From positions 124,001-188,000 of the forward strand of contig JADHOC010000003.1 of NCBI GenBank assembly GCA_016779205.1: 64,000 bases of DNA. The letters are read 5' to 3'. Positions within the stretch are counted from its first letter, which is position 1. Each line of letters opens with the position of its first letter. Source of the stretch: Planctomycetota bacterium. Its GTDB lineage: Bacteria > Planctomycetota > UBA1135 > GCA-002686595. This document shows, one piece after another, positions 5,878 through 47,787 of this stretch. The translations under genes and the position numbers were made by a program. The notes beneath the pieces are model-generated. The model saw only the letters and a list, made by a program, of their open reading frames with translations. It was not told the DNA's origin and searched no databases.

Positions 5878-7038
5878 ATGAAGCTCCGAACCCTCTCCGC
5901 CCTCTCCCTCGCCCTCTGCTCCACGGCCGCTGCGCAGGCCGACCTGATTCAGTGGGGCCCGGTCCAGAACGTGATGGCGGCCAGCGAGGTCAGCACCAAC
6001 GGCACCCTGGTCACCGCACGGAACTGCTGGGCGCAGACCTTCGCCGCGCCCACGGTCAACGGCGTCCCCTTCACCGCCTACGCGCCCCCGGGCTGGACCA
6101 ACGGCGGGTGGGTCCTCACCGTCGACTCGACCACCTGGGACGCCGAGTACGACGCCCTGCTCGATTCGGCCCGCGTCACCAGCGGCGGGAGCGCAGGGAA
6201 CCCCACCGGCTTCGGCGCGATCAACCTCGACAACCTCGGCACGCTCACGATCGGGAGCACCTACGAGATCCAGGTCTGGTTCTGCGACCAGCGTGAGGGC
6301 ACCCCCACCAACGTGCTCAACGACCGCATCATGACCATGAGCTCGGCGCTCGGCGCCGTGGTCGCGACCGGAGGGTTGGCCACCAACCTCAGCAACGTGA
6401 CCCAGGGTCCGCTCTCGGGTCCCCTGGATGCGGACCCCAACAACCAGTCCGGCACGTCGGACATGATCGTGGGCTCCTACTGCATCGGGACCTTCACGCG
6501 GACGACCAGCGACCCGCTCTGGTTGCTCGTCGAGGGCTCGCACCCGCTCCCGGGCAACGTGCTCCGGCCCCACCTGAACGCCTTCCAGATCCGCGACATC
6601 ACGGGCTCGAGCCTCGGGACGAACTACTGCACCGCCAACGTCAACTCCACCGGCGCCACGGCGGTCTTGGGCGCCTCCGGTAGCGCGGTCGCCGCCTCCA
6701 ACGACCTGACCCTCGAGGCCACGGCGCTGCCCCCGAACTCGTTCTGCTTCTTCCTCACGAGCCAGACCCAGGGGTTCGTCCAGAACCCCGGCGGCAGCCA
6801 GGGCAACCTGTGCCTGGGCGGCGCCATCGGCCGCTTCGTGGGCCCAGGGCAGATCGTCAACTCCGGCGCCGGCGGGGTCGCCTCCCTGGCCATCGACCTC
6901 ACCCAGCAGCCGACCCCCACCGGCCCGGTGACGGTCACGGCCGGCGAGTCCTGGAGCTTCACGACCTGGTACCGGGACAGCGCCGGCGGCGCCCCCACCT
7001 CCAACTTCTCCGACGGGCTGGAGATCCAGTTCAACTGA
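5878..7038 (+). CDS. Secreted protein of unknown function with the 138-residue C-terminal domain (copy 1)
   Basis: The 386-residue product starts with a clear signal peptide (MKLRTLSALSLALCSTAAAQA). Residues 22-248 resemble no family I can name; they are rich in Thr, Asn and Gly and look like a beta-sandwich, with TYEIQVWFCDQRE near the middle. Residues 249-386 are a domain found again, without gaps, at the C-termini of the proteins at 37851-39467 and 46585-47787. It opens with NYCTANVNSTGAT, has a central GNLCLGGAIGRF, and closes with WSFTTW and DGLEIQFN; Cys3 and Cys64 of the domain are shared by all three. The start at 5878 gives the signal peptide; the frame is open upstream only by chance. 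There is no Shine-Dalgarno, only a C-rich leader. Confidence 0.85.
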   Translation: MKLRTLSALSLALCSTAAAQADLIQWGPVQNVMAASEVSTNGTLVTARNCWAQTFAAPTVNGVPFTAYAPPGWTNGGWVLTVDSTTWDAEYDALLDSARVTSGGSAGNPTGFGAINLDNLGTLTIGSTYEIQVWFCDQREGTPTNVLNDRIMTMSSALGAVVATGGLATNLSNVTQGPLSGPLDADPNNQSGTSDMIVGSYCIGTFTRTTSDPLWLLVEGSHPLPGNVLRPHLNAFQIRDITGSSLGTNYCTANVNSTGATAVLGASGSAVAASNDLTLEATALPPNSFCFFLTSQTQGFVQNPGGSQGNLCLGGAIGRFVGPGQIVNSGAGGVASLAIDLTQQPTPTGPVTVTAGESWSFTTWYRDSAGGAPTSNFSDGLEIQFN

Positions 7039-7057
7039 CCCCGGCCCGGGCTCGGGC

Positions 7058-7930
7058 TCAGCGTCGCCGGATCACGGCGCCGACGAAGCGGTGGTCGCTG
7101 GGGTACTGCCCCTCGACCTCCGTCCAGTCGATCCAGGCCTCGGCGGTCTCGAGGCGGCGGTCGACCAGGACGTGATCGATCATCGCGCCCCGGCGGCCGC
7201 CCCGGAACCCGTGGCCGGTCTTGACCTCGGTGGCGTCGGGGTTGGTGTCGCGGAAGGTGTCGCGGAAGCCGGCCTCGGCGAGGGCCTTGAGCGGCGCGCT
7301 CTGCTCCCCGGCGTTGAAGTCCCCGAGGACCACCGTGGGGAGCTCGGCCCGGCTCGCCGCGAAGCGCCCGATGAGCCGCGCGCTCTCCAGGCGGGCCTGC
7401 TTGCCGATGTGGTCGAAGTGGGTGTTGATGACGCGGATGACCCGCCCTTCGTCCTCGCGGTCCGCCAGCTCGGCCCAGGTCGCGATACGGGTGAGCGCCG
7501 CGTCCTAGCCCACCGCCCCGAGCTTGTCCTCCGGCGCCAGCCGGAACGTGCCCGCGGCGCGGACCGTGAAGCGCCGCCCGTCCACGAGCAGCGCGGTCCA
7601 CTCACCGCGGTCGCCCCCATCTCGACCCTCGCCGATCACCAGGTGGTGCGGGAAGCGCGCGCGCACCTCGTCCACCTGGAAGCGGAGCGCCTCCTGGAGC
7701 CCGAGGACATCGGGCCGGGCGGCCTCGAGGGTGCTGAGCGCGAGCTCGCGGCGCAGCGGCCAGGCGTGGGCGCCGTCCCGCGCCGTCCCGTAGCGGACGT
7801 TGGCCGTCAGCGTCCGGATCGCCGGAGGCGCCGGCTCCGGGTCGTCCCCGGCGGCGAGGGGGGCGAGGAGGGAGGCGAGCGCCAGCAGCACGAGGCCGCG
7901 GAGCACGGTGGTGATCCTGAAGGTCGTCAT
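7058..7930 (-). pseudogene. Endonuclease/exonuclease/phosphatase (EEP) family hydrolase interrupted by one in-frame TAG
   Basis: Read through, the frame encodes 290 residues with a signal peptide (LRGLVLLALASLLAPLAAG) and all the usual EEP motifs: TANVRYGT, LGLQEALRFQV (metal-binding Glu), NTHFDHIG, VVLGDFNAG, MIDHVLV and PSDHRF (catalytic His). A single TAG at 7505-7507 breaks it after ...KLGAVG; the following residues (DAALTRIATWAEL) continue the same frame. The family normally has Gly-Trp at this place, so one transition in TGG would explain the stop. It starts 1 base after the DctP stop on the same strand, so the two form an operon. It may be a recent pseudogene, a sequencing or assembly error, or a read-through gene; codon use on both sides of the stop looks intact. 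Confidence 0.85.
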
Positions 7931-7931
7931 C

Positions 7932-9056
7932 TCAGCGCCCGGGGAAGGCGAAGTTGGCGTAGGCGAGCTCGGCGGAACCGAACCACCCGAAGCTCTCGTC
8001 GCGGAACTTCCGCCAGTGGGCCAGGAGCTTGCCGTACGCCGCGTCCCCGGCCGCCGCGTCCGAGAGCAGCTGCTCGGAGGCGTCGCGGGCCGCCGTCATG
8101 ATCGAGTCGGCGAAGGGCCGGATGGTGATGTCCCTGGCCATGAGCTCGGCGAGGGCGCCGGGGTTCCGGGCGTCATAGCGGGTCTGCATGGTCCGCGCGG
8201 CCTCCTTGGAGGCCGCCCCGAGCACCGCCCGGTACGACTCCGGCAGGCCCTCCCACTGGTCCTTGTTCACGTAGAACGAGAGGTGCGGACCCGGCTCCCA
8301 CCAGCCCGGGAAGTAATAGTTCTTGGCCACCTCGTAGAAGCCGAGCTTCTGGTCGTCGTAGGGGCCGACCCACTCGGTGGCGTCGATGGCGCCGCGCTCG
8401 AGCGCCTGATAGATCTCCCCACCCGGCAGGCTCTTGACCGAGACGCCCAGCTCCGCCATCACCTTCCCGCCGAGGCCAGGGATGCGCATCTTCAGCCCCT
8501 GGAGGTCCTGGACCGAGCTGACCTCCTTGCGGAACCAGCCCCCCATCTGCGTGCCGGTGTTGCCCCCCGCGAGGGCGACGCAGTTGAAGTCCGCGAGGAC
8601 CTCACCGATGAGCTCGGCGCCCCCGGCCTCGTCGAGCCACGCCGACTGCTGCCGCGCGTTGAGGCCGAAGGGGACGCAGGTCTCGAAGGCCAGCATCGGC
8701 GCCTTGCCGATGTAGTAGTAGCCGGCGGTCTGGCCCATGTGGACGGAGCCCTTCTGGACCGCGTCCAGCACCTCGAGCCCCGGCACGATCTCGCCAGCCT
8801 GGTAGGGGCGGATCCGGAAACGCCCGTCGGTCATGGCGGCGACCTGGTCGCAGAAAACCTCAGCCGACCCGAACATGGCGTCCAGCGTGCTAGGGAAGCT
8901 CGACTGCATGCGCCACTGGATGCGCTTGCCGCCGGTGTGCACGGCCGGACCACCCTCGCTCCCGCCGCAGGACGCGAGCGCGGCGCCCGCCGCTGCGCCG
9001 CCGATCAGGTCACGGCGCCGGAGGGTGGACGCGCGGTCTTGGTTGGTTGAGCTCAT
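7932..9056 (-). CDS. dctP: TRAP transporter substrate-binding lipoprotein (DctP/TakP-like)
   Basis: This is the extracytoplasmic receptor of a TRAP transporter. The 374-residue product has a Tat-like signal (RRRDLIGG at 13-20) ending in a lipobox with Cys30 (LASC), so it is probably a Tat-exported lipoprotein. Family motifs include MRIPGLGGKVMAELGVS, GGEIYQALERGAIDATEWVGPYDD and the Trp/Tyr-rich YYFPGWWEPGPHL, closest to the TakP type that binds 2-oxo acids. That substrate is inference. DctQ and DctM lie at 1374-3211 on the opposite strand. A TATGCT hexamer ends 6 bases before the ATG, predicting a leaderless message. The EEP gene follows after 1 base. Confidence 0.92.
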   Translation of the reverse strand: MSSTNQDRASTLRRRDLIGGAAAGAALASCGGSEGGPAVHTGGKRIQWRMQSSFPSTLDAMFGSAEVFCDQVAAMTDGRFRIRPYQAGEIVPGLEVLDAVQKGSVHMGQTAGYYYIGKAPMLAFETCVPFGLNARQQSAWLDEAGGAELIGEVLADFNCVALAGGNTGTQMGGWFRKEVSSVQDLQGLKMRIPGLGGKVMAELGVSVKSLPGGEIYQALERGAIDATEWVGPYDDQKLGFYEVAKNYYFPGWWEPGPHLSFYVNKDQWEGLPESYRAVLGAASKEAARTMQTRYDARNPGALAELMARDITIRPFADSIMTAARDASEQLLSDAAAGDAAYGKLLAHWRKFRDESFGWFGSAELAYANFAFPGR

Positions 9057-9062
9057 GGGCAG

Positions 9063-9068
9063 AGCATA
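9063..9068 (-). promoter_or_regulatory. -10-like hexamer TATGCT for dctP
   Basis: On the minus strand TATGCT is followed by six bases and then the ATG of dctP, the spacing expected for leaderless transcription. Confidence 0.45.
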
Positions 9069-9151
9069 CGCCAGCGGCGCACGCTCGCCCCCGCTCGCTT
9101 CCCCACGGCGGGGAGGAGGTCAGGAGCCCAGGGAGCGGAGCCCCCTCGCGC

Positions 9152-10795
9152 TCACTCCACCGTCATGACGAAGCGCTCCGAGCGGGCGACCCCGCCCGGC
9201 GCGGCCGCGTCACGGACCCACCACTGGCCCTCGAGCTTCAGCCCCAGGAGCTCGGGGGTCGTGGTCAGGGGGAAGCTCCAGGTGGCGTACCCCTCGCCAG
9301 GTCCCACGCCGTCCAGGACGATGGGTCCACCGGGGAGCGGGAGGGTGCGGACCCCAAGAGCAGCGGGGAAGCCGCCCAGGTCCAGCACCCGCAGGCGCAT
9401 GGCGCCGAAGGCCCCGCCGAGGCCGCCGGTGACGCCGACCCGGAAGTTCCCGGAGCCCAGGAAGGGCGCGGGCGTCAGGATCAGCTCGGGGGCCGTCCCG
9501 CCGCTGCCAGCCACCGCCCCGAGGCCCGTGGGCTCGGGGTTGGGGACCGCGCGCTCGAAGCGCAGCGTCGGCCGGTCGAAGGGGTAGGTCTCCGCGGCGA
9601 CCCGGGGGTCGGTGAGCGCGTGGAGGAACTCGGTGATGTCGTCGACCTCGGCCGGCGGGATGATCAGCCCGTTGAGCACCGGGTCGAGGTTGTCGAAGCC
9701 GCCGCCGACCCCGGTGCCGTAGATCGCCACCGTGTCGCGCAGGTCCTGCATCTGGGGGGCGCCGTTGTGGAACCAGTGGTTCCGCAGCGCCACGTTGCGC
9801 AGGGAGGGCGTCTTGAACTTGCCCTCGTCCCAGGGGTACCCGGTGACCGCCGCCCGGCCGATGTCCTCGGACGAGGGACGGAGCGCGAGCGCGTGGTAGT
9901 TGTTGTTCGCGAACAGGGGCGGCGTGTGGCAGACCGCACAGGCGGCCGTGGTCTCGAAGGCCACCATGCCGCGCTGCTGCTGGGCCGTCAGCGCGCCGGG
10001 GACGCCGCGCTGGAAGTCGTCCCAGGGGGTCTGGTCCGCGACGAGGGTTCGCTGGTAGGTCGCCAGCGCGAAGGCGATGCGCACGGGCGTGATGTCCGCC
10101 GTCCCGAAGGCCTGGGTGAAGAGGTCGGGATAGGTGGGGTGGGACTGGAGGGCGACCTGGACGTCCTGGGGCAGGTCGGTGGCGAGGGCCAGGGGTCGCG
10201 CGTCGGCGATCCGCGCCGAGAGGTCAGCGAAGCCCCGGGCGGGCTCGGCCATCTCCACGTCGGAGAGCAGCGGCCCCAGGGACTGCGACTCGAGGGCGCC
10301 CCCGGAGGCGATGGCCGTCGCGCCCGTCAGCGGATCCGTGAACTTGCTCGTCGCCCGCCCGTCCCAGAACAGATCCTGGAAGTAGCCCGCGGTGATGGGG
10401 CTCGGCGCGTAGCGGCCGGTGACCTGGGGCTCCAGGCCGAAGAGAGCGGAGGGCTCGAAGTGGCCGAAGCCGTCCGTGTTGACCACGCCCGGCGATCCGA
10501 ACCCGTCGTCGGCGGTGCCGAACACACCGTCGGGCCCGGGGAAGCGGGTCGCCGGCCCGGAGCGCAGCTCGGCCCCTCCCACGGACGGGATGTGGCAGGT
10601 GCCGCAGGCCATGGAGCCGTCGCTGGAGAGCTGCTCGTCCCAGAACAGGATCTTGCCGAGGACCGCCTTCTCCGCGGTCACCGGGTTCTCGGGCGGGGCG
10701 ACGGGGGGCGTCAGGTACCCCTGGGCCGAGGCCGCGCTGGCCAGCGCGGTACCGAGTAGAAGCGAGACGAGGGGCGTGCGAACGGCGTGGTTCAT
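9152..10795 (-). CDS. Secreted di-haem cytochrome c peroxidase-like protein with an extra C-terminal domain
   Basis: The 547-residue protein has a signal peptide cleaved near ASAQ (residue 25). Two c-type haem sites are visible: CGTCH at 64-68 and CAVCH at 286-290, within a CcpA/MauG-type fold (FWDGRATSKF, KTPSLRNVALRNHWFHNGAPQ). Such enzymes reduce peroxide or oxidise a protein or peptide substrate in the periplasm. After the peroxidase part ends (about residue 420) comes a roughly 115-residue Gly/Pro-rich beta domain (from LGAVAGSGGTAPEL to FVMTVE), not found in standard CcpA. It may be a sorting or binding module; it is not the 138-residue domain described elsewhere in this window. TAGAAT ends 6 bases before the ATG, so the message may be leaderless. 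Confidence 0.9.
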   Translation of the reverse strand: MNHAVRTPLVSLLLGTALASAASAQGYLTPPVAPPENPVTAEKAVLGKILFWDEQLSSDGSMACGTCHIPSVGGAELRSGPATRFPGPDGVFGTADDGFGSPGVVNTDGFGHFEPSALFGLEPQVTGRYAPSPITAGYFQDLFWDGRATSKFTDPLTGATAIASGGALESQSLGPLLSDVEMAEPARGFADLSARIADARPLALATDLPQDVQVALQSHPTYPDLFTQAFGTADITPVRIAFALATYQRTLVADQTPWDDFQRGVPGALTAQQQRGMVAFETTAACAVCHTPPLFANNNYHALALRPSSEDIGRAAVTGYPWDEGKFKTPSLRNVALRNHWFHNGAPQMQDLRDTVAIYGTGVGGGFDNLDPVLNGLIIPPAEVDDITEFLHALTDPRVAAETYPFDRPTLRFERAVPNPEPTGLGAVAGSGGTAPELILTPAPFLGSGNFRVGVTGGLGGAFGAMRLRVLDLGGFPAALGVRTLPLPGGPIVLDGVGPGEGYATWSFPLTTTPELLGLKLEGQWWVRDAAAPGGVARSERFVMTVE

Positions 10796-10801
10796 GACGG
10801 A

Positions 10802-10807
10802 ATTCTA
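10802..10807 (-). promoter_or_regulatory. -10-like hexamer TAGAAT for the di-haem peroxidase
   Basis: TAGAAT followed by six bases and the ATG at 10795. It is one of the closest matches to the TATAAT consensus in the window. Confidence 0.45.
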
Positions 10808-10987
10808 CCGGGGTCTCCAGGTGGGGAGGAGGCCGCCATGATTCCGGAGGGCAGGGAGCCCGCTTCGGTTCCCGGAGATTGCGGGGGGGTCCTCAATACG
10901 GGCCAATGCGGCTGAGTCGCAGTATCGCCGCGGCCGGGCGCCACACCCCCGGGGAGGTCGAAGGGGGCCGCCCCTCGCCCTCACCGA

Positions 10988-12058
10988 TCAGTCGGGCGGG
11001 GAGGTGTTCGGCAGGGGGAGTCGGGCTCCCCCACTTCGAGAGAATCTGAGGGAGGGCCGCTCGACGAGGGCGTAGCTGAGGCCTCCGAAGAGGACGGAGA
11101 GGCCGACCCCCAAGGGGCCAATCCAGCCCCGCTGGCCGCCTGGCAGGTATGCGGCGACGAGGGCGAGGGCCATGGCGTGGTAGAGGTAGACGCTGTAGCT
11201 GATCCGCCCCAACGCGGTCAGGGGTCGCCATGAGAGGCCCGCCCGGAGGCGCGCCCCCGACGGGACGATGCACCCCATCAGGAGGAGGGCCCAGAGCGCC
11301 GATTGCCCGAGGAACCAGAGGTGGAAGCGGCGGTGCGGGACCGGCTCACCGAGCACCAACGACGCCACGCTCGGCGTGAGCAGGAGCATGCCGGCGGCGC
11401 CCACCGCGCCGGCCCAGGCGAGGGCCTGCCCTCCCCTCCCCCGGAGCGACGAGAGGCGGGGCCCGAGGACCGCCAGCAGGGAACCGGTCAGGAAGATCGG
11501 CATGAACGGCAGGACGTTGGGCGTGAAGTCCGGCGCCCTGGCTGGGTAGTCAGGCGGGAAGACCCATGAGAAGCCGGCGATGCCAGCGACCAGCACGAGG
11601 GCCCTCGCCGGCCACCCCGGGAGCGCCGAGAGGACCAGGCCCAGGGCGGGGAGCGAGAGGTAGAACAGCACCTCGACCGGGACCGTCCAGAAGTGCGCCT
11701 CCCCCCGCAGGAAGACCAGGTGCTGGAGGGCGACCTTCGGGGAGAACTCGCCCAGCGCCACGTAGACGCCGAGGCACACGGCGAAGGCGGGGGCGACCCG
11801 CATGAGCCGCCGCACGGCGAAGCGGCCCCAGCCCACCCCCTCGCCCGAGTCCGCCCGCTCGAGGACCTGGGAGGTGAGGAGGAAGCTCGAGAGGATGAAG
11901 AAGAGGAAGACCCCGCCGCGACCGATTCCCCCGGCGTCGAGGCCCGGGAGCACGTCATGGCCGCCGTTGCTGGCGTGGGACAGCAGCACCATCAGCACGG
12001 CGATTCCGCGGAGTCCGTCGAGCGGTTCGGAGCGCTTCACGGCGGTCAGGGTACGCAT
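10988..12058 (-). CDS. Acyltransferase 3 family membrane protein (OafA/YrhL-like)
   Basis: This is an integral membrane O-acyltransferase of the kind that adds acyl groups to cell-surface sugars. The 356-residue product has about ten hydrophobic helices. Family features are LDGLRGIAVLMVLLSHA near residues 13-29, with the conserved His; FFILSSFLLTSQVLE; GRISYSVYLYHAMALALVAA near the end; and the closing YALVERPSLRF. The frame runs further upstream, but the ATG at 12058 was chosen because the conserved N-terminus starts there and it avoids overlap with the divergent glnS. About 50 bases separate the two start codons. The substrate is unknown. Confidence 0.88.
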   Translation of the reverse strand: MRTLTAVKRSEPLDGLRGIAVLMVLLSHASNGGHDVLPGLDAGGIGRGGVFLFFILSSFLLTSQVLERADSGEGVGWGRFAVRRLMRVAPAFAVCLGVYVALGEFSPKVALQHLVFLRGEAHFWTVPVEVLFYLSLPALGLVLSALPGWPARALVLVAGIAGFSWVFPPDYPARAPDFTPNVLPFMPIFLTGSLLAVLGPRLSSLRGRGGQALAWAGAVGAAGMLLLTPSVASLVLGEPVPHRRFHLWFLGQSALWALLLMGCIVPSGARLRAGLSWRPLTALGRISYSVYLYHAMALALVAAYLPGGQRGWIGPLGVGLSVLFGGLSYALVERPSLRFSRSGGARLPLPNTSPPD

Positions 12059-12073
12059 GAGGCGGCGCCTGCG

Positions 12074-12079
12074 TACACT
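12074..12079 (+). promoter_or_regulatory. -10-like hexamer TACACT for glnS
   Basis: Located 29 bases before the glnS ATG, predicting a leader of about 23 bases without a Shine-Dalgarno. Confidence 0.35.
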
Positions 12080-12108
12080 CCTGCGCTCCAGAGCGCCCCC
12101 AGACCACC

Positions 12109-13812
<1,704 letters not shown>

Positions 13813-13849
13813 GGGGCGACGAAGCCGGGAACGGATGGCCCGTCGGGAC

Positions 13850-13855
13850 TACAGT
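13850..13855 (+). promoter_or_regulatory. -10-like hexamer TACAGT for the FixH-like/MbnH-like/PepSY operon
   Basis: TACAGT ends 6 bases before the ATG at 13862, consistent with a leaderless start of the three-gene operon. Confidence 0.4.
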
Positions 13856-13861
13856 GTCCCC

Positions 13862-14338
13862 ATGGGTCCCCGGCGCCGCCTCTCTCTCCCGCTCCTCCCG
13901 CTGCTGCTCATCGGCTGCGCCGGTGGTGAGGGCGACGCCGCGCCGGCGAGCTCCGGGGAGACCCAGCCCGCCCCCCACGTCCTCCAGGTCCCCGCGCCCC
14001 GGGAGCTCACCACCCGCGATGGCCGGTTCCTCATCTCCTGGGCGCCGGTCGGCGGCGAGGTGCCGGTCAACGAGCACTTCGAGGCGGAGGTGACGGTGCG
14101 ACGCGCGGCCTCGGCTGGAGCAGAGGGCGAGCTGGTCGAGGACGCCGTGGTCTCGATGACCTGCTTCATGCCGGACCACGGACACGGGATGCTGCGCGAG
14201 CCGAGGACGGAACCCCTCGGGACGGGGGCCTACCGCGTCCGCGGGCTGCTCCTCCACATGGGCGGCGACTGGTCGATCTCCATCAGCGCCTCCATCGACG
14301 GGCTCGCCTCCACCGCCGACGACTCCATCTCGCTGTGA
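13862..14338 (+). CDS. FixH/YtkA-like lipoprotein
   Basis: The 158-residue product has a lipoprotein signal (PLLPLLLIGC, Cys19) and one beta-sandwich domain at about residues 60-155. The motif MTCFMPDHGHGM, followed by GAYRVRGLLLHMGGDWSISI, matches FixH or YtkA-like domains, whose Met and His residues are good copper-ligand candidates. Its role is inferred from context: it is the first gene of an operon with a di-haem enzyme and a PepSY protein, so metal handling or redox maturation of a periplasmic substrate is plausible. An upstream in-frame GTG (13835) is less likely because ATG 13862 begins the lipoprotein signal and has a well-placed -10 hexamer. Its stop overlaps the next ATG by one base. 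Confidence 0.75.
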   Translation: MGPRRRLSLPLLPLLLIGCAGGEGDAAPASSGETQPAPHVLQVPAPRELTTRDGRFLISWAPVGGEVPVNEHFEAEVTVRRAASAGAEGELVEDAVVSMTCFMPDHGHGMLREPRTEPLGTGAYRVRGLLLHMGGDWSISISASIDGLASTADDSISL

Positions 14339-16998: not shown

Positions 16999-17095
16999 CT
17001 CACTCCGTTCTTCGGCCCCTCTGGCCCCCCATCTGGAATCGAACCTGGCATCTGGAAAGGGAAGCCGGGGGGCTGGGCGCCCGCGCTCGGGGGGC

Positions 17096-17101: not shown

Positions 17102-17109
17102 GGCGCCCC

Positions 17110-36635: not shown

Positions 36636-36668
36636 GACGCTGACCCGAAGATCCAAGGAGCAACAGCC

Positions 36669-37619
<951 letters not shown>

Positions 37620-37642
37620 ACCGGGCCAGACCGTGATTGCGG

Positions 37643-37674
37643 GGAGCGGGCTGATCTGGCGATCAGCCCGCTCC
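37643..37674 (+). terminator. Hairpin terminator after etfA
   Basis: A perfect 14-bp stem with a 4-base loop begins 23 bases after the etfA stop and is followed by TCTCGTTTC, a weak T-containing tail. Confidence 0.65.
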
Positions 37675-37850
37675 TCTCGTTTCGGGGCCTGGGTCTGCAA
37701 CGATCCCATGCCGATGGTCGATCGACGCCGCAGCTTGCGAGAATTTGCAGAGCCGCTGTGATCCAGTGTGACCCCGCTGCGCGAAGTGCCTATTGGTGAT
37801 GACGCGGCCAAACCGCGGTCTCCTCGCTCGCTCACCAACTTCCCACCGGC

Positions 37851-39467
37851 ATGAACCTCCCCGTCACCCGACGCCTCCTCATCGCAGCTGCGCTCTGCTC
37901 GATCGGATCCGCCCAGACCGTCTCCGAGTCCTATCGGATCGCCAACCCGGCTCCCGACCCCTTCGGAAACACCTTCGGCTGGAGCATCGCGACCGACGGC
38001 GGCCGCTCCATCATCTCGAACCTCGATCGGTCGACCTGGATCATCGACACCGCGACCGGGACGCCGCTCCTGGAGCTGCCCAACCCGAACGCCAACGATC
38101 CCTCCGACATCGTGTATTACGGCTGGGACGTGGCGCTCGACGGCGACCTGGCGATCGTGGGCGCGCCTTACCTCGACACCAACCCGATCTCCACCGTCAT
38201 CACGGATGACATCGGCGGCGCCTGGCTCATGGACTCCGCCACAGGGCAGATCATTGACTTCCTCTCGGGCTCCGTCCCCATCGCGAACGATAATCAGGGG
38301 AAGGCGGTCGCCCTCCACAAGGACTACATCCTCATCGGCTCGCCGAGAATCGACGTCTCCTTCTTCGAAGGGGACCGCGGCGCGGTTCACATCTTCGATC
38401 GGGTGACCCGGCAGGAGCTCGAGATCCTCCAGCCGTTCGACGTGGAGGACAATGACAACTTCGCCTCGGACATCGCGGTGGAGGGGAACCTCATGCTGGT
38501 CGGCGCACCGGGCGACGACAGTGAGCGAGGTTCAGTCTACGTCTACGACCTGTCGTCCCCGGGCTTCCCGTTCCTGCGCAAGCTGACGGCGCTCGACCGG
38601 CAGCCCGGTGATCGATTCGGCGAGGTGGTCTCCCTGAGCGGTGACCGCGCCGTCATCGGAGCGCCGGCTGATTCGTTCAACGGCGTCGCCAGGGCTGGCT
38701 CCGCTTACGTCTTCGAGGTCTCGACCGCGCAGCAGCTCCGCAAGCTCACAGCACCCAGCCCCTCCGAGGACTCCTTGTTCGGCAATGCCGTCGCCCTCTC
38801 CGGTGAGGTCGCCGTGGTCGGCGCCCCCTTCTCGGGACCCAACTTCCAAGGAGCGGCGTTCGAGTTCAACGCCGCGACCGGCGCGCTGGTCGGTCGCTTG
38901 GCCTCTTCGGCGCCTCAGGCGAGCGCCTGCTTCGGTCTCGCCGTGGCAACGGACGGCGTTCAGTCCCTGATCACCGAGACCGGATACCCCGTCGGCAACA
39001 CGCCCTTCGACGGCGCAGTCTGCGCGTTCGGCTTCCCGGCCCTGGGTACGAACTACTGCACCGCCAACCTGAACTCCGCGGGGCGGTTCGGCTCCCTCGG
39101 AGCCGTCGGTTCGACGGAGGTGGCGCAAGACGATATCACCCTCGCGGCATCCAACCTGCCCCTGGGCGTCTTTGGGTTCTTCCTTGTGTCCAGGACCCAG
39201 GGCTTCGTGACGAATCCGTTTGGCAGCGCGGGGAACCTGTGCCTCGGTGGCGCCATCGGCCGATATGTGGCGCCTGGGCAGATCAAGAACTCCGGACCGG
39301 ACGGCCTGATCACCCTCGGCTTGGACCTCGGGAACGTCCCGCAGCCAAGCGGGCACGTCGGCATCCAGCCGGGAGAGAGCTGGAGCTTCCAGCTCTGGCA
39401 CCGCGAGAACTTCGGCGGTGCCGGCAACTCCAATTACACCGACGGCTACGAGATCGTCTTCGAGTGA
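37851..39467 (+). CDS. Secreted FG-GAP repeat protein with the 138-residue C-terminal domain (copy 2)
   Basis: The 538-residue protein starts with a signal peptide (RLLIAAALCSIGSAQ). Residues 40-395 carry five or more integrin-like FG-GAP repeats, each with a GxxAxVGAP-type core (GDLAIVGAP, KDYILIGSP, GNLMLVGAP, GDRAVIGAP, GEVAVVGAP), predicting a beta-propeller. Residues 401-538 are the 138-residue domain shared with the proteins at 5878-7038 and 46585-47787: NYCTANLNSAG at the start, GNLCLGGAIGRYV in the middle, and DGYEIVFE at the end. The propeller probably binds other proteins or polysaccharide outside the cell. No Shine-Dalgarno precedes the ATG. A hairpin follows 32 bases after the stop. 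Confidence 0.88.
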   Translation: MNLPVTRRLLIAAALCSIGSAQTVSESYRIANPAPDPFGNTFGWSIATDGGRSIISNLDRSTWIIDTATGTPLLELPNPNANDPSDIVYYGWDVALDGDLAIVGAPYLDTNPISTVITDDIGGAWLMDSATGQIIDFLSGSVPIANDNQGKAVALHKDYILIGSPRIDVSFFEGDRGAVHIFDRVTRQELEILQPFDVEDNDNFASDIAVEGNLMLVGAPGDDSERGSVYVYDLSSPGFPFLRKLTALDRQPGDRFGEVVSLSGDRAVIGAPADSFNGVARAGSAYVFEVSTAQQLRKLTAPSPSEDSLFGNAVALSGEVAVVGAPFSGPNFQGAAFEFNAATGALVGRLASSAPQASACFGLAVATDGVQSLITETGYPVGNTPFDGAVCAFGFPALGTNYCTANLNSAGRFGSLGAVGSTEVAQDDITLAASNLPLGVFGFFLVSRTQGFVTNPFGSAGNLCLGGAIGRYVAPGQIKNSGPDGLITLGLDLGNVPQPSGHVGIQPGESWSFQLWHRENFGGAGNSNYTDGYEIVFE

Positions 39468-39499
39468 GGCGCCGAGGCAGCAGTGGCTCCCCACCACCA

Positions 39500-39530
39500 C
39501 GGCCCGCCCCGAATCACTCGGGGCGGGCCG
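39500..39530 (+). terminator. Hairpin terminator after the FG-GAP protein gene
   Basis: A perfect 13-bp GC stem with a 5-base loop, followed by CGTTCGTTG; no long T-run. It lies between convergent genes and could serve both. Confidence 0.6.
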
Positions 39531-39592
39531 CGTTCGTTGCGCAGCACCCGGCGAGTATGCGCCTCTGCGAACCGATCAGTCCGGTGCCAGGG

Positions 39593-41017
39593 TCATGGCC
39601 TTCGGGAGGTCATGAGCGACACGGCGACGATCACCGCCGTGTTGACGACGAGGCCCGGGAGGCCGGGGTGGAGGTCGGAGGGCGGCATCAGATGGGGCCA
39701 CGCCAGCGTGGTCGCTGAGCCGAGGAGCAGACCGAGGAGCGCGGCGATCCCCGTGGCCCGCTTCCAGAACAGCGCCGCGAGCACCGGGGGCGCGAGCTGG
39801 CCCATCGGGCCGTAGGCGTAGGAGAGCAGGCCGACCAGGTCCTCGTGGAACGAGACCGCGGTGACGTACGAGATCACCAGGATCGGGAGCAGCATCCAGC
39901 GCACGGCGCGCCGCTCCGCCTCGGGGCTGAGCGACCGCCTGGCGCCGACGATCCACCCGTCGCGGACGAGGATGGACGCGGCGGAGTGCAGGATCGCGTC
40001 GCCGCTGGACATGGACGCAGCGAGGGCGCCGGCGCAGAAGAGGCCGATCAGGAGCGCCGGGAGGTCCAGCTGGAGCAGGAGGTGTGGGAGCACCTGGTCC
40101 GCCTGCTCCGGCGCGGGCGTGAAGCCCACGGCCGCGAAGCCGATGAGCAGGATGGGTAGCAGGAAGAGCTGGAACGTGGGGTAGAGCACCACCGTGCGGC
40201 GGATCACGCCCTCGCTGCGCGCCGCGAAGGCCTTCTGGAAAAGGTGCGGCCAGAAGGAGAAGCCGGCGGCCATGACGAAGACCGAGCTGCCGTAGCCGAG
40301 CCACGACCAGCGGCCGCCGTCGCCCTTGCCCGCCCCCGGGAGCCGGAGGAACTCCGGGTCGATGGTCTGGAACATCTCCCCCACGCCGCCGTGCAGCGCG
40401 CGCGGCAGGTAGAGCCCGAGGGACCAGGCCATGACCATCATGAAGAGGCCCTGCAGGGTGTTGGTCCAGCCGACCCCCATCACGCCGCTGTGCCACACGT
40501 AGAGGAGCACAACGCCGTAGACCACCGCGGCGCCGACCTCCACGGACATGGCCCCGGAGGTGAGGACCTCGAGCACGTGACCCGCGCCGCGCATCTGGAG
40601 CGCGAGGTAGGGCACGAAGGCGAGCAGGCTGACCACCGCCATGACGGGCGCGAGCGGCCGGAAGCTGAGCTCCCCCGCGACGAGCTCCGCCTGGGTGATG
40701 TAACCCTTGCGCCGCCCGAGCCGCGCCGCCGCCGGCCCGGTCCAGTAGAAGGGCAGGAAGCCCAGCACGCCGAAGGCGAGGATGTGGAACGCGGCGGCGC
40801 CGGTGGAGTACGCGCGGCCCGGCGCCCCGAGGAACGCGAAGGCGCTGAAGATCGTGGCGCCGGTGACAAAGTACATGAGCACGGGGCCCATGGAGCGATC
40901 GCCCGCGACGAAGCCGGTGGCGCTGTCGCTCGCCGTGCGGGCCGCGCGCCAGCCGACGAAGAGGCTCAGCGCGAGGTAGGCGCCGACCACCAGGAGGATC
41001 TGGGCCTCGTCGCTCAT
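39593..41017 (-). CDS. Sodium:solute symporter (SSS family)
   Basis: The 474-residue protein has 12-13 hydrophobic helices and SSS features: DSATGFVAGDRSMGPVLMYFVTGATIFSAFAFLG near the N-terminus, YITQAELVAGE, GALAASMSSGDAILHSAASILVRDGWI (the Na+-site helix region) and YAYGPMGQLAPPVLAALFWKRAT. It probably couples Na+ entry to uptake of a small organic solute. The frame extends 60 bases upstream, but the ATG at 41017 overlaps the stop of the small membrane protein gene and has GGAGGGGAAGAGG just before it. The pair resembles symporters encoded with a DUF3311-like small subunit. Confidence 0.92.
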   Translation of the reverse strand: MSDEAQILLVVGAYLALSLFVGWRAARTASDSATGFVAGDRSMGPVLMYFVTGATIFSAFAFLGAPGRAYSTGAAAFHILAFGVLGFLPFYWTGPAAARLGRRKGYITQAELVAGELSFRPLAPVMAVVSLLAFVPYLALQMRGAGHVLEVLTSGAMSVEVGAAVVYGVVLLYVWHSGVMGVGWTNTLQGLFMMVMAWSLGLYLPRALHGGVGEMFQTIDPEFLRLPGAGKGDGGRWSWLGYGSSVFVMAAGFSFWPHLFQKAFAARSEGVIRRTVVLYPTFQLFLLPILLIGFAAVGFTPAPEQADQVLPHLLLQLDLPALLIGLFCAGALAASMSSGDAILHSAASILVRDGWIVGARRSLSPEAERRAVRWMLLPILVISYVTAVSFHEDLVGLLSYAYGPMGQLAPPVLAALFWKRATGIAALLGLLLGSATTLAWPHLMPPSDLHPGLPGLVVNTAVIVAVSLMTSRRP

Positions 41018-41241
41018 GCCTCTTCCCCTCCTTCCGCGGCGCCCGACTCCCCGGGCTCGGTGGCCATGTAGGCCCACATGACCAGGGGCGTCAGCGCGGC
41101 CCAGCCTGTGACCCAGGCCAGCCCCACCGGCAACCCGAGGATCAGCCCGTCCGCGGTCGAGAGGTCACGGAAGAGGAGCCCGGTGAGGCTCAGCACCGCG
41201 AGGGAGAGGTAGATCAGGAGGAGTAGATGTCGCAGGGCCAT
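41014..41241 (-). CDS. Small two-helix membrane protein, DUF3311-like partner of the symporter
   Basis: The 75-residue protein has two membrane helices (about 4-23 and 32-58) and an acidic, Gly-rich tail. Small proteins of this kind, often annotated DUF3311, are commonly encoded just before an SSS symporter. Its stop overlaps the symporter ATG, so translation is coupled. A TACCGT hexamer ends 6 bases before the ATG. Confidence 0.75.
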   Translation of the reverse strand: MALRHLLLLIYLSLAVLSLTGLLFRDLSTADGLILGLPVGLAWVTGWAALTPLVMWAYMATEPGESGAAEGGEEA

Positions 41242-41247
41242 GGCCTC

Positions 41248-41253
41248 ACGGTA
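41248..41253 (-). promoter_or_regulatory. -10-like hexamer TACCGT for the symporter operon
   Basis: On the minus strand TACCGT is followed by six bases and the ATG at 41241, predicting a leaderless message. Confidence 0.4.
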
Positions 41254-41336
41254 GCGCGCCGCCCCGTTCGCCGTCGTCCCATCGTCGCGCCTCCGTATCG
41301 CAGCGCCTCCCAGGGCCCGGAGGCGCTATGCTCTTC

Positions 41337-41342
41337 GCTCGT
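41337..41342 (+). promoter_or_regulatory. -10-like hexamer TATGCT for the parvulin gene
   Basis: Lies 32 bases before the ATG at 41375; the leader contains AGGAG, one of the clearer Shine-Dalgarno sites in the window. Confidence 0.4.
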
Positions 41343-41374
41343 TTTTCAGGGAAACCAACCACAGGAGCAACCCC

Positions 41375-41653
41375 ATGGCCCGCGCATCCGCACGCCACAT
41401 CCTCGTCGACACGGAAGAGAAGTGCCTCAAGCTGAAGGAGGAGATCGCCGGCGGCGCCGACTTCGCCGACCTCGCCAAGCAGCACTCCTCCTGCCCCTCC
41501 GGCAAGAGCGGCGGCAACCTCGGTGAGTTCGGACCCGGCCAGATGGTCAAGGAGTTCGACACCGTGGTCTTCAACGAGGCCGTCGGTGAGGTCCACGGTC
41601 CGGTCAAGACCCAGTTCGGCTACCACCTCCTCGAGGTCACGAGCCGCTCGTGA
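41375..41653 (+). CDS. ppiC: Parvulin-type peptidyl-prolyl cis-trans isomerase
   Basis: The 92-residue protein is a single rotamase domain with no signal peptide, so it acts in the cytoplasm on protein folding. Family motifs are ARHILVDTEEKC at the start, ADFADLAKQHSSCPSG, GGNLGEFGPGQMVKEFD and, at the end, VKTQFGYHLLEV. Its size matches E. coli PpiC. AGGAG lies at a good distance before the ATG. It is monocistronic between two minus-strand genes. Confidence 0.95.
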   Translation: MARASARHILVDTEEKCLKLKEEIAGGADFADLAKQHSSCPSGKSGGNLGEFGPGQMVKEFDTVVFNEAVGEVHGPVKTQFGYHLLEVTSRS

Positions 41654-41739
41654 GCACCCCCGCTCCGCCGATCCTCGAGGCGAGGACCGGCGGGGCGTGA
41701 TCGCCGCTCCCCGCGAGGGGCTCCGGCCCCACCGGGGGG

Positions 41740-43470
41740 CTACCGGCCGAGGCCCAAGGCCGCGAGGAGCACGCGCACGAGGCGCGTCACCGTGGGCCGG
41801 GCCGCCAGCGCGGTCATGTGGCGCCCCACCGCCGGCCCCGAGCGGCTCCGCGTGAACCAGGCCGGCCGCGGGAAGATGCGGAACGGCGCACGGAGCACCG
41901 TCTTCTGCGGGCGATCGAAGAGGAACGTGTTGTGGACCGTCCCGATGCCGCTGCCTGCGTCGTCGAGGGAGTTTCCGGGGAAGGCGCCCCAGGTGGTCCC
42001 CCCGAGCGGGAACGAGGCGGCGGCCCAGAGGTTGACCGCCACAGTGCCGTACCGGAGGTCGGTGATGGCGCGCTCCACGGCTCGGGCGACAGCGGGGTCG
42101 CGGAGCGAGGCGGGGTGAACAAGGAGGGTCACGTTCAGGCTCCCAGCGATCACCTCGTTGGCGAACCGCACCGCCTTGCGGATGAACTCGGCGGGGTCCG
42201 CCGCCGGGACCGGCGCCTCCGCCATGGCCCCGCACCAGAACTCGTGCTGGAAGCAGGGGTCGAGGCGCTCGGCGGGATCGAGGCCAGCGGCGAGGAGCCA
42301 AGGGGTCTCGCTGTCTCCCACCTGGGTCGCGTCCGGATGAGCGTCGAGGAAGGCCGCTCGCTGCTCCTTTTGCCCGGGATAGTAGGCCGGCCGCGGCTCG
42401 GTCTCACCGAGGGCCTCGCGGAGGGCGCCGAGAAGCTCGTCCCGCTGCGCCCAGCCCCCGTGGGTCAGGATCACCCGCGTCGCGTTGCAGTTGAAGCCCG
42501 CGTTGGTGGTGAGTGAGCTGGCGAGGTTCTCCCCGTGGTACCGGAGGTCCCCCTTCGACCAAGGTCCAGGGACGACGATCACGGGGCTCACGTTGCCCAG
42601 CTCGCTCGTCACCGGCCGGTCATTGCGAGGCGTCCCGGCGCGCTTGCGCTCCAGCGCCTCTTCGCCCTCTCCCCAGACGACCCGGTCGTGGGTCGCGAGG
42701 GACCCGGTGACGTGGATCGAGTCGATCCCCCCGTGCTGACAGAGCCGCTCCCCCACCTCGGCGCCCCCGTACAGGAGCCGCAGCAGGTCGGCGTCGATCA
42801 GCGGCGAGAGCGCCTCCTCGAGGGCGGGACCCGCCGCCTGGTTCACGGGGTTCATCTTCAGGACCGCGCACTCCCCCTCGGAGAAGAGCTTGTGCAGCAC
42901 GTCCATGGGCCCGATGGAGGTCACGTTGCCCGCCCCGAGCACGAGGCCCACCCGCGCACGCCGCGCCCCCCCGCGGTGGGCACCGGCCATGTTGTCCTTC
43001 ACCTCGCCCAGGGCCACCTCGGGGTCGAGCCACACCTCCGCGCTGATCCCCCTCAGGAGGATCCGATCCAGGGGATCCGCCGGGAAGACCGGCGCGGCCA
43101 CCTGGCCCCCTGGGAGCGCCCTCACCACGCCGGGGAGGGCCGGTGCGCCGCGCTCGCCGAGGTCCTTCAGCGAACGGATCAGCTGCCGGACCGCGCGCAG
43201 GACGGTGTAGGGCCCGCCGAGCCACTCCTCGGCCTCGGCGTGCGCCCCGCGGGCGACGCCCTTCAGGGCGCAGCCCGCGGCGACCCAGCGGTCCGCCGCA
43301 GCCTCGATGGAGAGGACGAGCGTCTCGAGCAGCCGGACCTGCTCCGCCGGCGTCGTCGTTCGCCACCGCTCCGCGCCTGCTCGCAGGGCGGCGATCGCCG
43401 CGTCCTGTTCGGCCGGGGTCGAGGGCGAGGGCGCCGCCGCCGGGCCGCTGGATCCGGTCTCGTTCATCAT
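41740..43470 (-). CDS. Divergent aldehyde dehydrogenase superfamily protein
   Basis: The 576-residue product has an ALDH fold: a Rossmann region VGLVLGAGNVTSIGPMDVLHKLF, a cofactor region SIHVTGSLATHDRVVW, SELGNVSPVIVVPG (the usual ELGGKSP box) and the catalytic Cys328 in TTNAGFNCNATRV. It is longer than common ALDHs, with an extra N-terminal segment (residues 1-95) and a basic C-terminal tail (from PAWFTRSRSG). It resembles poorly studied ALDH-like proteins that act on acyl or bulky aldehydes; the substrate is unknown. TACCCT ends 8 bases before the first ATG. Confidence 0.85.
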   Translation of the reverse strand: MMNETGSSGPAAAPSPSTPAEQDAAIAALRAGAERWRTTTPAEQVRLLETLVLSIEAAADRWVAAGCALKGVARGAHAEAEEWLGGPYTVLRAVRQLIRSLKDLGERGAPALPGVVRALPGGQVAAPVFPADPLDRILLRGISAEVWLDPEVALGEVKDNMAGAHRGGARRARVGLVLGAGNVTSIGPMDVLHKLFSEGECAVLKMNPVNQAAGPALEEALSPLIDADLLRLLYGGAEVGERLCQHGGIDSIHVTGSLATHDRVVWGEGEEALERKRAGTPRNDRPVTSELGNVSPVIVVPGPWSKGDLRYHGENLASSLTTNAGFNCNATRVILTHGGWAQRDELLGALREALGETEPRPAYYPGQKEQRAAFLDAHPDATQVGDSETPWLLAAGLDPAERLDPCFQHEFWCGAMAEAPVPAADPAEFIRKAVRFANEVIAGSLNVTLLVHPASLRDPAVARAVERAITDLRYGTVAVNLWAAASFPLGGTTWGAFPGNSLDDAGSGIGTVHNTFLFDRPQKTVLRAPFRIFPRPAWFTRSRSGPAVGRHMTALAARPTVTRLVRVLLAALGLGR

Positions 43471-43478
43471 CGGGGTCG

Positions 43479-43484
43479 AGGGTA
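43479..43484 (-). promoter_or_regulatory. -10-like hexamer TACCCT for the aldehyde dehydrogenase-like gene
   Basis: Followed by eight bases and the ATG at 43470; leader of about one or two bases. Confidence 0.35.
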
Positions 43485-43525
43485 ACCGCGCTGCAGGGGC
43501 CGCGCCGACGACCGCGCCGTGGCGG

Positions 43526-43939
43526 TCAATCCAACCGCCCCGGGTCGGCGACGACCGCCGCCTCGATGAGGGCGACCGTCTCGGGAAAGGGGAGCATGGC
43601 GCCGACCTCGGAGACGGGCACCCAGGCGCGGTCGCGGGGCTCCTGCGCGCCCACCTCGGCCCCGAACTCCATGGCGTAGAACCCGCAGATCACCCGCGCC
43701 TCACCCAGCACGAAGTCCACCGCTCCCGCCCAGCGCGGCGTGGAGCCGACGACTCCGGCCTCCTCCTCCACCTCGCGGAGCGCCGCCGCTTCGGCCGCCT
43801 CGCCTGGCTCGATGTGCCCCTTCGGGAGCACCCAGGGCGCCTCCGGACGGGCGAGCGGCCGGACCAGCAGGACCTCCCTGTGGCCGCGCTCGCCGCGCAG
43901 CACGATGCCTCCCGCGTGAGTGAGTGATTCCCGCTCCAT
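43526..43939 (-). CDS. Nudix hydrolase
   Basis: The 137-residue single-domain protein has the full Nudix box GHIEPGEAAEAAALREVEEEAGV (Gx5Ex7REUxEExGU), after PWVLPKG. The length and PWVLPKGH context are like Ap4A hydrolase or diphosphoinositol-type Nudix enzymes; the exact nucleotide substrate cannot be named. The ATG at 43939 follows GGAGG at a good distance, so the longer upstream frame is not used. It is divergent from the ABC exporter; the two start codons are 67 bases apart. Confidence 0.88.
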   Translation of the reverse strand: MERESLTHAGGIVLRGERGHREVLLVRPLARPEAPWVLPKGHIEPGEAAEAAALREVEEEAGVVGSTPRWAGAVDFVLGEARVICGFYAMEFGAEVGAQEPRDRAWVPVSEVGAMLPFPETVALIEAAVVADPGRLD

Positions 43940-43949
43940 CAGGCCTCCG

Positions 43950-43955
43950 AGCGTA
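43950..43955 (-). promoter_or_regulatory. -10-like hexamer TACGCT for the Nudix gene
   Basis: On the minus strand TACGCT lies 10 bases before the ATG at 43939 and overlaps the start of the Shine-Dalgarno-containing segment, so the leader would be very short. Confidence 0.3.
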
Positions 43956-43989
43956 GCCCATTGGGCACCCGGACCCACAGGGGTGCGGC

Positions 43990-43995
43990 TATCCT
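43990..43995 (+). promoter_or_regulatory. -10-like hexamer TATCCT for the ABC exporter
   Basis: Ends 11 bases before the ATG at 44007; leader about 4-6 bases, all C and G. Confidence 0.4.
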
Positions 43996-44006
43996 CTTCG
44001 CGCCCC

Positions 44007-45796
<1,790 letters not shown>

Positions 45797-45800
<4 letters not shown>

Positions 45801-46384
45801 CCGACCCGATCAGCGAGACCGTGAGGGCGGCCATCCGGCGGCTCGACGGGTCGGGGGAGGTCCCCACGGCGAGCGCCCGGCGGGCGGCCGTCGCGCTGCT
45901 CCTCAGGGGGGAGTCCGCCGGGGACCTCGAGGTGCTCCTGATGCGGCGCGCCCACCGGCCAGGGGATCGATGGTCCGGCCAGATCGGTCTCCCCGGAGGT
46001 CACGCGGAGGCGGCGGACGAGAGCCTCGTGGCCACCGCGCGACGCGAGTCCGTGGAGGAGGTCGGCGTGGATCCGGGCGCTGGCGCAGGGCGGCTGATCG
46101 GAGAGCTGCCCTCCGTTCAGGCCAGGGCGCGGGGGGAACGCCTCGATCTGTTCATCACCCCCTTCGTCTTCCACCACCCCGCGCCCGCCTCGCCGGTGCT
46201 TGGACCCGAGGCGTCCGAGGCGTTCTGGCTCCCGCTCGCGCCCGCGATCTCCGGCGACTTCGACGAGACCTACCGCTACCAGCACGGCGAGGTGATCCAC
46301 CGCCTTCCGTCCTGGCGATTCGAGGGCAGGACGATCTGGGGCATGACCCACGGCATCGTCAGCCGCTTCGGATCCGCCCTGTAG
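45797..46384 (+). CDS. Nudix hydrolase, CoA pyrophosphatase-like
   Basis: The 195-residue protein has RWSGQIGLPGGHAEAADESL and the Nudix box continuing to RRESVEEVGV. It also carries the flanking features of the NudL/coenzyme A diphosphatase group: AVALLLRG at the start, and VFHHPAPASPV and RLPSWRFEGRTIWGMT near the end. Members cleave CoA to 3',5'-ADP and phosphopantetheine. The ATG overlaps the stop of the ABC exporter, so the two are co-translated. A longer frame upstream is unlikely. Confidence 0.88.
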
Positions 46385-46584
46385 GTGATCTGGAGGGGTT
46401 CAGTGCATCGTTCTGAATCACCCGGGCGGTGATCCGACGCACCCACTCGCGGCTTTTTGTCTCACCCCGCCCGAAGCGCCTGGTTCCCCCGTGTGGGACT
46501 GGTTTTTCCGTGGGAGACTCGTAAACGGTAGGCGTCCCGAGCGGGGCGCCACGTCTAGCAACACCACCTCTCTTCCCCCTCAAA

Positions 46585-47787
46585 ATGCTCCGTTCTCTCT
46601 CCCTCTCGGTCGTCGCACTCGGTCTCGCGGCGACAGCCTCCGCCCAGGTGACCACCATCGCCACCGAGTCGTTCGAATACCCCGTCCCGGGCCTGCTCTA
46701 CCAGCAAGCCGGCGGAACCGGCTGGTCGAACGCCTGGTGGGTCAGCGGTGGGGCCAACGACGAGCTGGTCATGTTCGACCAGACCATCCAGCCCCCCTTC
46801 GCCGCTGCCGACTCCCTCGGTGGCTACGCTGGCCAGACCGGCGTCTTTGGCGCCGCGTACCGTCAGTTCGACCTCGGTGCGCACCCCGAGCTCATCGACC
46901 CGAACACCGGCCGCTGGGGCGCTGACGGTGAGACCATCTGGATCTCCTTCAGCACCGTCAACTTCCAGGGCCAGCCGCAGGACCACTACGGCGGCCTTTC
47001 TCTTTGGCGCGCCGGTCAGAACCCGGCCGAGTCGCTGTTCCTCGGGGCCCCGTGGAATGCCCAGGGCTGGGGCATCGACGACGAGGGAGACCTCGCCGGC
47101 TCGGCACCCGCCTCCATCATCCCCGGCACCAACGACCAGGTGGCCAGCCGCCTTGTGGTGCGCATGGACTACATGTCCGGGCAGAACCGCTGCCGCATGT
47201 GGGTCGATCCCACCACGGACTATCCGACGGGCACCGCTGACCTCGACGAGATGGTCACCGGCGGCGACTTCGACGAGATCCGCCTCTCCTCGGGAGGTAA
47301 CAACGGTGACCTGTTCTTCTGGGACAACATCGTGGTCGCCAAGGGTGTCCCCACGGGCGGCCTCGGCGTGAACTACTGCACGGCCAACGTGAACTCCACG
47401 GGCGCCACCGGCAGCATCTCCGCCACCGGCTCCGACCAGGTCGCGAACAACAACCTGACGCTCACCGCGGGTGACCTGCCGCCCAACTCCTTCGGCTTCT
47501 TCCTCACGAGCCAGACCCAGGCCCAGGTCGCCAACCCCGGCGGCAGCGCCGGCAACCTGTGCCTCGGCGGCGCCATCGGCCGCTACGTGGGCCCGGGTCA
47601 GGTCCTGAACTCCGGCAGCGCCGGCGCGTTCTCCCTCGCCCTCGACCTCACCAACACCCCCCAGCCCACGGGCGGGGTCTCGGTGCAGGCAGGCGAGACC
47701 TGGAGCTTCACCACCTGGCACCGTGACGCCGTCGGCGGCACCACCACGTCCAACTTCACGGACGGCCTCGAGATCACCTTCAACTGA
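46585..47787 (+). CDS. Secreted protein with the 138-residue C-terminal domain (copy 3)
   Basis: The 400-residue protein has a signal peptide (MLRSLSLSVVALGLAATASAQ). Residues 25-255 look like a beta-sandwich, perhaps concanavalin-like: ESFEYPVPGLLYQQAGGTGW, then TIWISFSTVNFQGQPQDHYGG and FFWDNIVVAKG. Residues 263-400 are the 138-residue domain, 138 residues long as in the other two copies: NYCTANVNSTGATGS at the start, GNLCLGGAIGRYVGPGQ in the middle, and SNFTDGLEITFN at the end. It is most like copy 1. A 200-base AT-richer gap precedes it and a very strong hairpin follows it, so it is monocistronic. Confidence 0.87.
   Translation: MLRSLSLSVVALGLAATASAQVTTIATESFEYPVPGLLYQQAGGTGWSNAWWVSGGANDELVMFDQTIQPPFAAADSLGGYAGQTGVFGAAYRQFDLGAHPELIDPNTGRWGADGETIWISFSTVNFQGQPQDHYGGLSLWRAGQNPAESLFLGAPWNAQGWGIDDEGDLAGSAPASIIPGTNDQVASRLVVRMDYMSGQNRCRMWVDPTTDYPTGTADLDEMVTGGDFDEIRLSSGGNNGDLFFWDNIVVAKGVPTGGLGVNYCTANVNSTGATGSISATGSDQVANNNLTLTAGDLPPNSFGFFLTSQTQAQVANPGGSAGNLCLGGAIGRYVGPGQVLNSGSAGAFSLALDLTNTPQPTGGVSVQAGETWSFTTWHRDAVGGTTTSNFTDGLEITFN

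What the first reader, a model, noticed from the sequence alone, without database searches (positions are those of the whole stretch)
5878..47787. A 138-residue C-terminal domain shared by three otherwise unrelated secreted proteins
Residues 249-386 of the protein at 5878-7038, 401-538 of the protein at 37851-39467, and 263-400 of the protein at 46585-47787 align end to end without a gap, each exactly 138 residues. Shared features are NYCTAN at the start, GNLCLGGAIGR in the middle, PGQ..NSG, GE.WSF..W.R and DG.EI.F at the very end, with two invariant cysteines (domain positions 3 and 64). The N-terminal parts differ (unknown beta-sandwich, FG-GAP propeller, concanavalin-like). A C-terminal module on diverse signal-peptide proteins looks like a sorting, anchoring or secretion tag. 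I know of no named family for it.
Basis: partly seen in the sequence, partly recalled or inferred. Interest (0 to 1): 0.72.

Follow-up and report, generated by a model that had tools for sequence, protein, structure and literature searches.

The report
Widespread C-terminal domain on secreted proteins
Dozens to well over a hundred unrelated exported proteins in each of these planctomycete bacteria (relatives of the shape-shifting Saltatorellus) end in the same unnamed beta-sandwich domain, which most likely places them on the cell surface, although the cell part that would recognise it is not known.

Summary
The three ungapped 138-residue C-terminal domains are real (58-71% identical). The window's 4.3 Mb genome has 88 copies by a profile of the three and 95 by a broader one; 86 of the 88 end 0-2 residues before the stop codon. 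Each protein has one copy, nearly all with a readable start have a Sec signal peptide, and passengers fall into about 43 unrelated groups. The window's genus includes Saltatorellus ferox Poly30, with at least 150 copies. Remote relatives occur in 24 of 119 sampled Planctomycetota genomes, again C-terminal. Pfam, NCBIfam, PHROGs, PADLOC and the PDB (sequence and fold) have no match. AlphaFold2 gives a confident 9-strand beta-sandwich (pLDDT 96.8); Cys3 and Cys64 are kept or lost together, indicating a disulfide. The sorting-tag reading is only partly supported: three small groups carry the domain internally (one, domain then cytochrome c, in all nine genomes of the genus), some distant genomes have a single copy, and no partner was found. 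Best reading: a folded localisation module, secretion signal or surface anchor, analogous to but not a member of the type IX C-terminal domains.

The parts
5878..7038 (+). domain carrier 1, 386 aa: Sec signal peptide (cleavage ...TAAA|Q), passenger without a Pfam family, C-terminal domain
6622..7035 (+). C-terminal domain, copy 1 (residues 249-386)
37851..39467 (+). domain carrier 2, 538 aa: Sec signal peptide (...GSA|Q), FG-GAP propeller, C-terminal domain
39051..39464 (+). C-terminal domain, copy 2 (residues 401-538)
46585..47787 (+). domain carrier 3, 400 aa: Sec signal peptide (...ASA|Q), concanavalin-like passenger, C-terminal domain
47371..47784 (+). C-terminal domain, copy 3 (residues 263-400); the sequence folded with AlphaFold2

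Best explanation
The domain is a folded localisation module for exported proteins. Shown by sequence: almost every carrier with a readable start has a Sec signal peptide, one domain sits (as a rule) at the extreme C-terminus, and the same domain is joined to about 43 unrelated passenger groups. Predicted: after Sec export and signal-peptidase cleavage the domain folds in the periplasm into a 9-strand beta-sandwich closed by a Cys3-Cys64 disulfide. Inferred: a conserved face (NSTG loop, G61-x-L-C-x-G-G-x-x-x-R71, W116-x-R118-D119, N128) binds one common envelope component, so that very different passengers (FG-GAP propellers, lectins, proteases, nucleases, sulfatases) end up on or outside the outer membrane. 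It would act either as a C-terminal sorting signal read by an outer-membrane exporter or as a non-covalent surface anchor; I put these about equal.
For: 88 copies in the window's genome, 86 ending 0-2 residues before the stop; 185 of 201 distinct copies over all loci within 5 residues of the stop and never two in one protein; Sec signal peptides on nearly all own-genome carriers whose start lies inside the fetched DNA. Passengers form 43 BLAST clusters and match 43 Pfam families, mostly extracellular kinds, including GBD_T9SS_assoc, which Pfam names for its link to type IX secretion. Confident fold, pLDDT 96.8. Cys3/Cys64 both present in 98 and both absent in 2 of 100. G61, R71 and R118 invariant in 100 domains. 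In the closest orthologues the domain stays with the same passenger at 84-98% identity, while copies within one genome average 44%, so the copies are old and maintained rather than freshly copied. Window proteins that look periplasmic (DctP, di-haem peroxidases) lack it.
Against: No localisation experiment exists. At least three groups carry the domain internally. Some distant genomes have a single copy (G344), which fits a dedicated machine badly. No partner was found: SprA gave no match (no positive control), the secretin GspD is present in domain-rich and domain-poor genomes alike, exosortase does not track it. Some clearly exported window proteins, such as the reprolysin at 52670-55258, do without it.
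Confidence: 0.55

Rival explanations
1. The domain is specifically a C-terminal secretion signal of an undescribed outer-membrane export system in Planctomycetota, working like the type IX C-terminal domains but with an unrelated translocon (the narrower half of the best explanation).
For: Extreme C-terminal position with 0-2 trailing residues, single copy per protein, unrelated passengers, shared passenger family GBD_T9SS_assoc, strong conservation across paralogues.
Against: Conserved N-terminal or internal copies; single-copy genomes; no candidate translocon found.
Confidence: 0.28
2. The domain is a ligand-binding or stabilising module of extracellular proteins (for example glycan-binding, or a protective end cap) and has nothing to do with sorting.
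For: Disulfide-closed beta-sandwich; portable to internal positions; Foldseek neighbours are generic Ig-like and adhesin domains; carriers are extracellular kinds of protein.
Against: A free binding module would be expected in tandem or at varied positions; here it is never repeated and about 92% terminal. The passengers share no obvious substrate. No match to any carbohydrate-binding family.
Confidence: 0.25
3. The domain is a membrane-processed C-terminal signal of the PEP-CTERM or GlyGly-CTERM type.
For: C-terminal position on many signal-peptide proteins; exosortase occurs in some of these genomes, including Poly30.
Against: No PEP motif, transmembrane helix or basic tail: the proteins end in a beta-strand such as DGLEITFN. 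Exosortase was not found in the window's genome, G002, G007, G012 or G019, all domain-rich, while it is present in domain-poor G016 and G022.
Confidence: 0.02
4. The copies are a duplication artefact: one C-terminal cassette recently spread by recombination, without function.
For: Very large copy number in one lineage.
Against: Own-genome copies average 44% identity (maximum 83%), and close orthologues keep the same domain on the same passenger at 84-98%; the same residues are kept across families of the phylum.
Confidence: 0.02

Closest known systems
Type IX secretion C-terminal domains (RgpB, PorU, PorZ; TIGR04183, PF18962)
   Same: Beta-sandwich at the extreme C-terminus of many unrelated Sec-exported proteins; some of the same passenger kinds (GBD_T9SS_assoc, FG-GAP, metalloproteases, endonuclease I).
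   Different: 138 residues with 9 strands against a compact 3+4 sandwich (PMC11285876); a disulfide; no sequence or profile match; no type IX domain named among the 50 best Foldseek hits; sometimes internal; no SprA match (without a positive control).
PEP-CTERM / exosortase (PMC1569441)
   Same: Many signal-peptide proteins per genome with a homology domain near the C-terminus (87% with fewer than ten further residues there; about 92% within five residues here).
   Different: Not a short PEP-transmembrane-basic tail but a globular domain; exosortase not found in several domain-rich genomes.
Generic Ig-like and adhesin repeat domains (best Foldseek neighbours)
   Same: Ig-like beta-sandwich class.
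   Different: No match at E<=0.001, TM-score at most about 0.45 by query length; not tandemly repeated.

Membership tests
Type IX secretion C-terminal domain | matches the type A/B sorting-domain models | tested here: not met
   100 members scanned against Pfam and NCBIfam: no match to these models
Type IX secretion C-terminal domain | genome encodes the SprA/Sov translocon | tested here: inconclusive
   0 of 37 genomes match PF14349, but no control genome matched either
Type IX secretion C-terminal domain | strictly C-terminal position | tested here: not met
   185 of 201 terminal, but three groups carry it internally
Type IX secretion C-terminal domain | compact seven-strand Ig-like fold as in RgpB/PorZ | tested here: not met
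   AlphaFold2: 9 strands, 138 aa; no PDB fold match at E<=0.001
Type IX secretion C-terminal domain | needed for outer-membrane passage | not testable with these tools
   needs an experiment
PEP-CTERM / exosortase substrate | PEP motif, transmembrane helix, basic tail | tested here: not met
   sequences end in a beta-strand, e.g. DGLEITFN
PEP-CTERM / exosortase substrate | exosortase in the same genome | tested here: not met
   no PF09721 match in G000, G002, G007, G012, G019; a control genome matched
GlyGly-CTERM / rhombosortase substrate | C-terminal Gly-Gly, transmembrane helix, basic residues | tested here: not met
   absent from the sequences
Any Pfam, NCBIfam, PHROGs or PADLOC family | score above the curated cut-off or E<=0.001 | tested here: not met
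Sortase (LPXTG) substrate | LPXTG-like motif and a sortase gene | not tested
   no such motif seen in the aligned domains; the sortase gene was not searched for

The most novel reading that the evidence does not exclude
The domain is the cargo signal of an undescribed secretion or surface-display system of Planctomycetota, convergent with type IX secretion, that carries roughly ninety to several hundred proteins per genome in the shape-shifting Saltatorellus clade and builds their cell surface.
Probability: 0.27. Interest if true: 0.88.

Novelty: new variant of a known kind. Interest (0 to 1): 0.64.

Why it matters
How planctomycetes move proteins to their surface is poorly known (own knowledge), and the Saltatorellus clade is noted for shape-shifting (PMC11481906). 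A single unnamed domain on at least 88 proteins of a 4.3 Mb genome, and at least 150 in the cultured, complete S. ferox Poly30, is a handle on the clade's exported proteome. It would group a large set of unannotated secreted proteins and makes the search for a partner receptor or exporter concrete.

Tried and rejected
A known family: Pfam, NCBIfam, PHROGs, PADLOC and PDB sequence and fold searches gave nothing significant. Type IX machinery: no SprA match, but without a positive control. Exosortase: does not track the domain. A type II secretin as specific partner: GspD-like proteins are in all 23 genomes tested, rich or poor. The idea that domain-poor relatives put a different tag on the same passenger: GBD_T9SS_assoc proteins there show no shared replacement tag in those that could be read (the printout was cut). 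Plasmid carriage: none found. Full-length model of the third window protein: shallow alignment, domain part unreliable; only its passenger fold was used, as a lead.

Full report
Observation. The three proteins and their ungapped 138-residue C-terminal domains are as described. Identities to the first copy are 58% and 71%, and the two cysteines at positions 3 and 64 are invariant. The N-terminal parts are unrelated to each other by BLASTP.

Scale. A profile of the three copies finds 88 places in the window's genome (4.3 Mb, 36 contigs) and a broader profile 95, the last few weak. Relatives in the same GTDB genus, and many of the same family, carry tens to hundreds. G006, whose single contig has the same length as CP036434.1 (7,718,526 bases), is Saltatorellus ferox Poly30: all 150 candidates scored, of 381, matched, so 150 is a lower bound.

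Architecture. In the window's genome 86 of 88 copies end 0-2 residues before the stop; the other two are the cytochrome fusion L063 and a fragment at a contig end (one further partial match, L109, reaches the end with better profiles). Almost all carriers whose start lies within the fetched DNA begin with a Sec signal peptide (a home-made scoring, not SignalP). Masked passengers fall into 43 BLAST clusters, the largest with 20 members, and match 43 Pfam families: FG-GAP, C-type lectin, GSDH, lamin-tail, subtilase, endonuclease I, M14 and reprolysin peptidases, sulfatase and others. Over all loci, 185 of 201 distinct copies lie within 5 residues of the stop and no protein has two. Loci were fetched because they match the domain, so orthologues are counted separately.

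Exceptions. L063 reads signal peptide-domain-CxxCH cytochrome c. The same order, domain then cytochrome part, is present in loci of all nine genomes of the genus, so the arrangement is kept. L053 has the domain before a Calx-beta-like end. L200 and L202 carry a remote version before what looks like the last sub-domain of a sulfatase (that reading rests on my knowledge of sulfatase C-termini). C-terminal position is therefore a strong habit, not a requirement.

Fold and residues. AlphaFold2 with 100 family members gives pLDDT 96.8 and pTM 0.91, essentially all beta. Foldseek finds no PDB or viral match at E<=0.001; the best are Ig-like, neocarzinostatin and adhesin domains at low TM-score. Cys3 and Cys64 are present together in 98 and absent together in 2 of 100 sequences, never singly, as expected of a disulfide. 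G61, R71 and R118 are invariant, and C3, N8, G20, P37, C64, G85, D92, G108, F113, W116, D119 and N128 nearly so.

Evolution. The closest orthologues keep the same domain on the same passenger (84-98% domain identity; lower in more distant species), while copies in one genome average 44%. The family is therefore old and maintained, not a fresh spread. With a broader profile, remote members turn up in 24 of 119 Planctomycetota genomes drawn evenly from the phylum, in 14 GTDB families, including large sets in families f8, f27 and f47 (at most 36 candidates scored per genome, so counts are lower bounds). Profile-profile comparison ties the window's subfamily to these remote ones (E 5e-12 and 8e-11, and 2e-17 between the two remote sets). 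These remote sets also have no Pfam or NCBIfam name. No other phylum was searched systematically.

Mechanism. Three facts point to a common destination: one domain, unrelated extracellular kinds of passenger, and one usual place in the protein. Two facts warn against a dedicated secretion machine: conserved internal copies, and a distant genome with a single copy (G344). No partner was found: SprA no match but no positive control; exosortase not linked; GspD-like secretins everywhere. I therefore commit to a folded localisation module, with secretion signal and surface anchor about equally likely, overall confidence 0.55.

Known work. No paper found here describes the domain (open-licence papers only, so an unseen description is possible). 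Type IX C-terminal domains are the nearest functional analogue; a compact 3+4 sandwich whose C-terminus is essential is described in PMC11285876. Membership was tested and not met on sequence, fold and strict position; the machinery test was inconclusive.

Noticed in passing
signal peptides of domain carriers in the window's genome; also window 9152-10795 (-) and 52670-55258 (+): Signal peptides end A-x-A followed by glutamine: 63 of 71 carriers have [AGS]Q within residues 14-36 although Q is 3.2% of passengers. This resembles the Bacteroidetes Q-rule (pyroglutamate at mature N-termini, PMC5837995), here in Planctomycetota. A glutaminyl cyclase was not searched for.
   Followed up: partly
L063 1669-2490 (-) and loci L176-L183: Domain-cytochrome c (CIICH) fusion with the domain directly after the signal peptide; the same order is present in all nine genomes of the genus.
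   Followed up: yes
L105 (G000:C17:4000-12000): Three neighbouring, mutually similar domain carriers with a longer, divergent form of the domain (about 145 aa).
   Followed up: no
window 52670-55258 (+): Reprolysin-like protease with GBD_T9SS_assoc and fibronectin III domains but without the C-terminal domain: an exported protein of the same kind that lacks the tag.
   Followed up: partly
G105 and G161 (family f47), G043 (family f8): Large numbers of candidates for the remote version of the domain (first look 212, 267 and 147; all 36 scored in each matched): separate large sets outside the Saltatorellus family.
   Followed up: partly
L200 and L202 (genomes G023, G032): Remote version of the domain apparently inserted in a sulfatase-like protein ahead of its last sub-domain.
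   Followed up: partly
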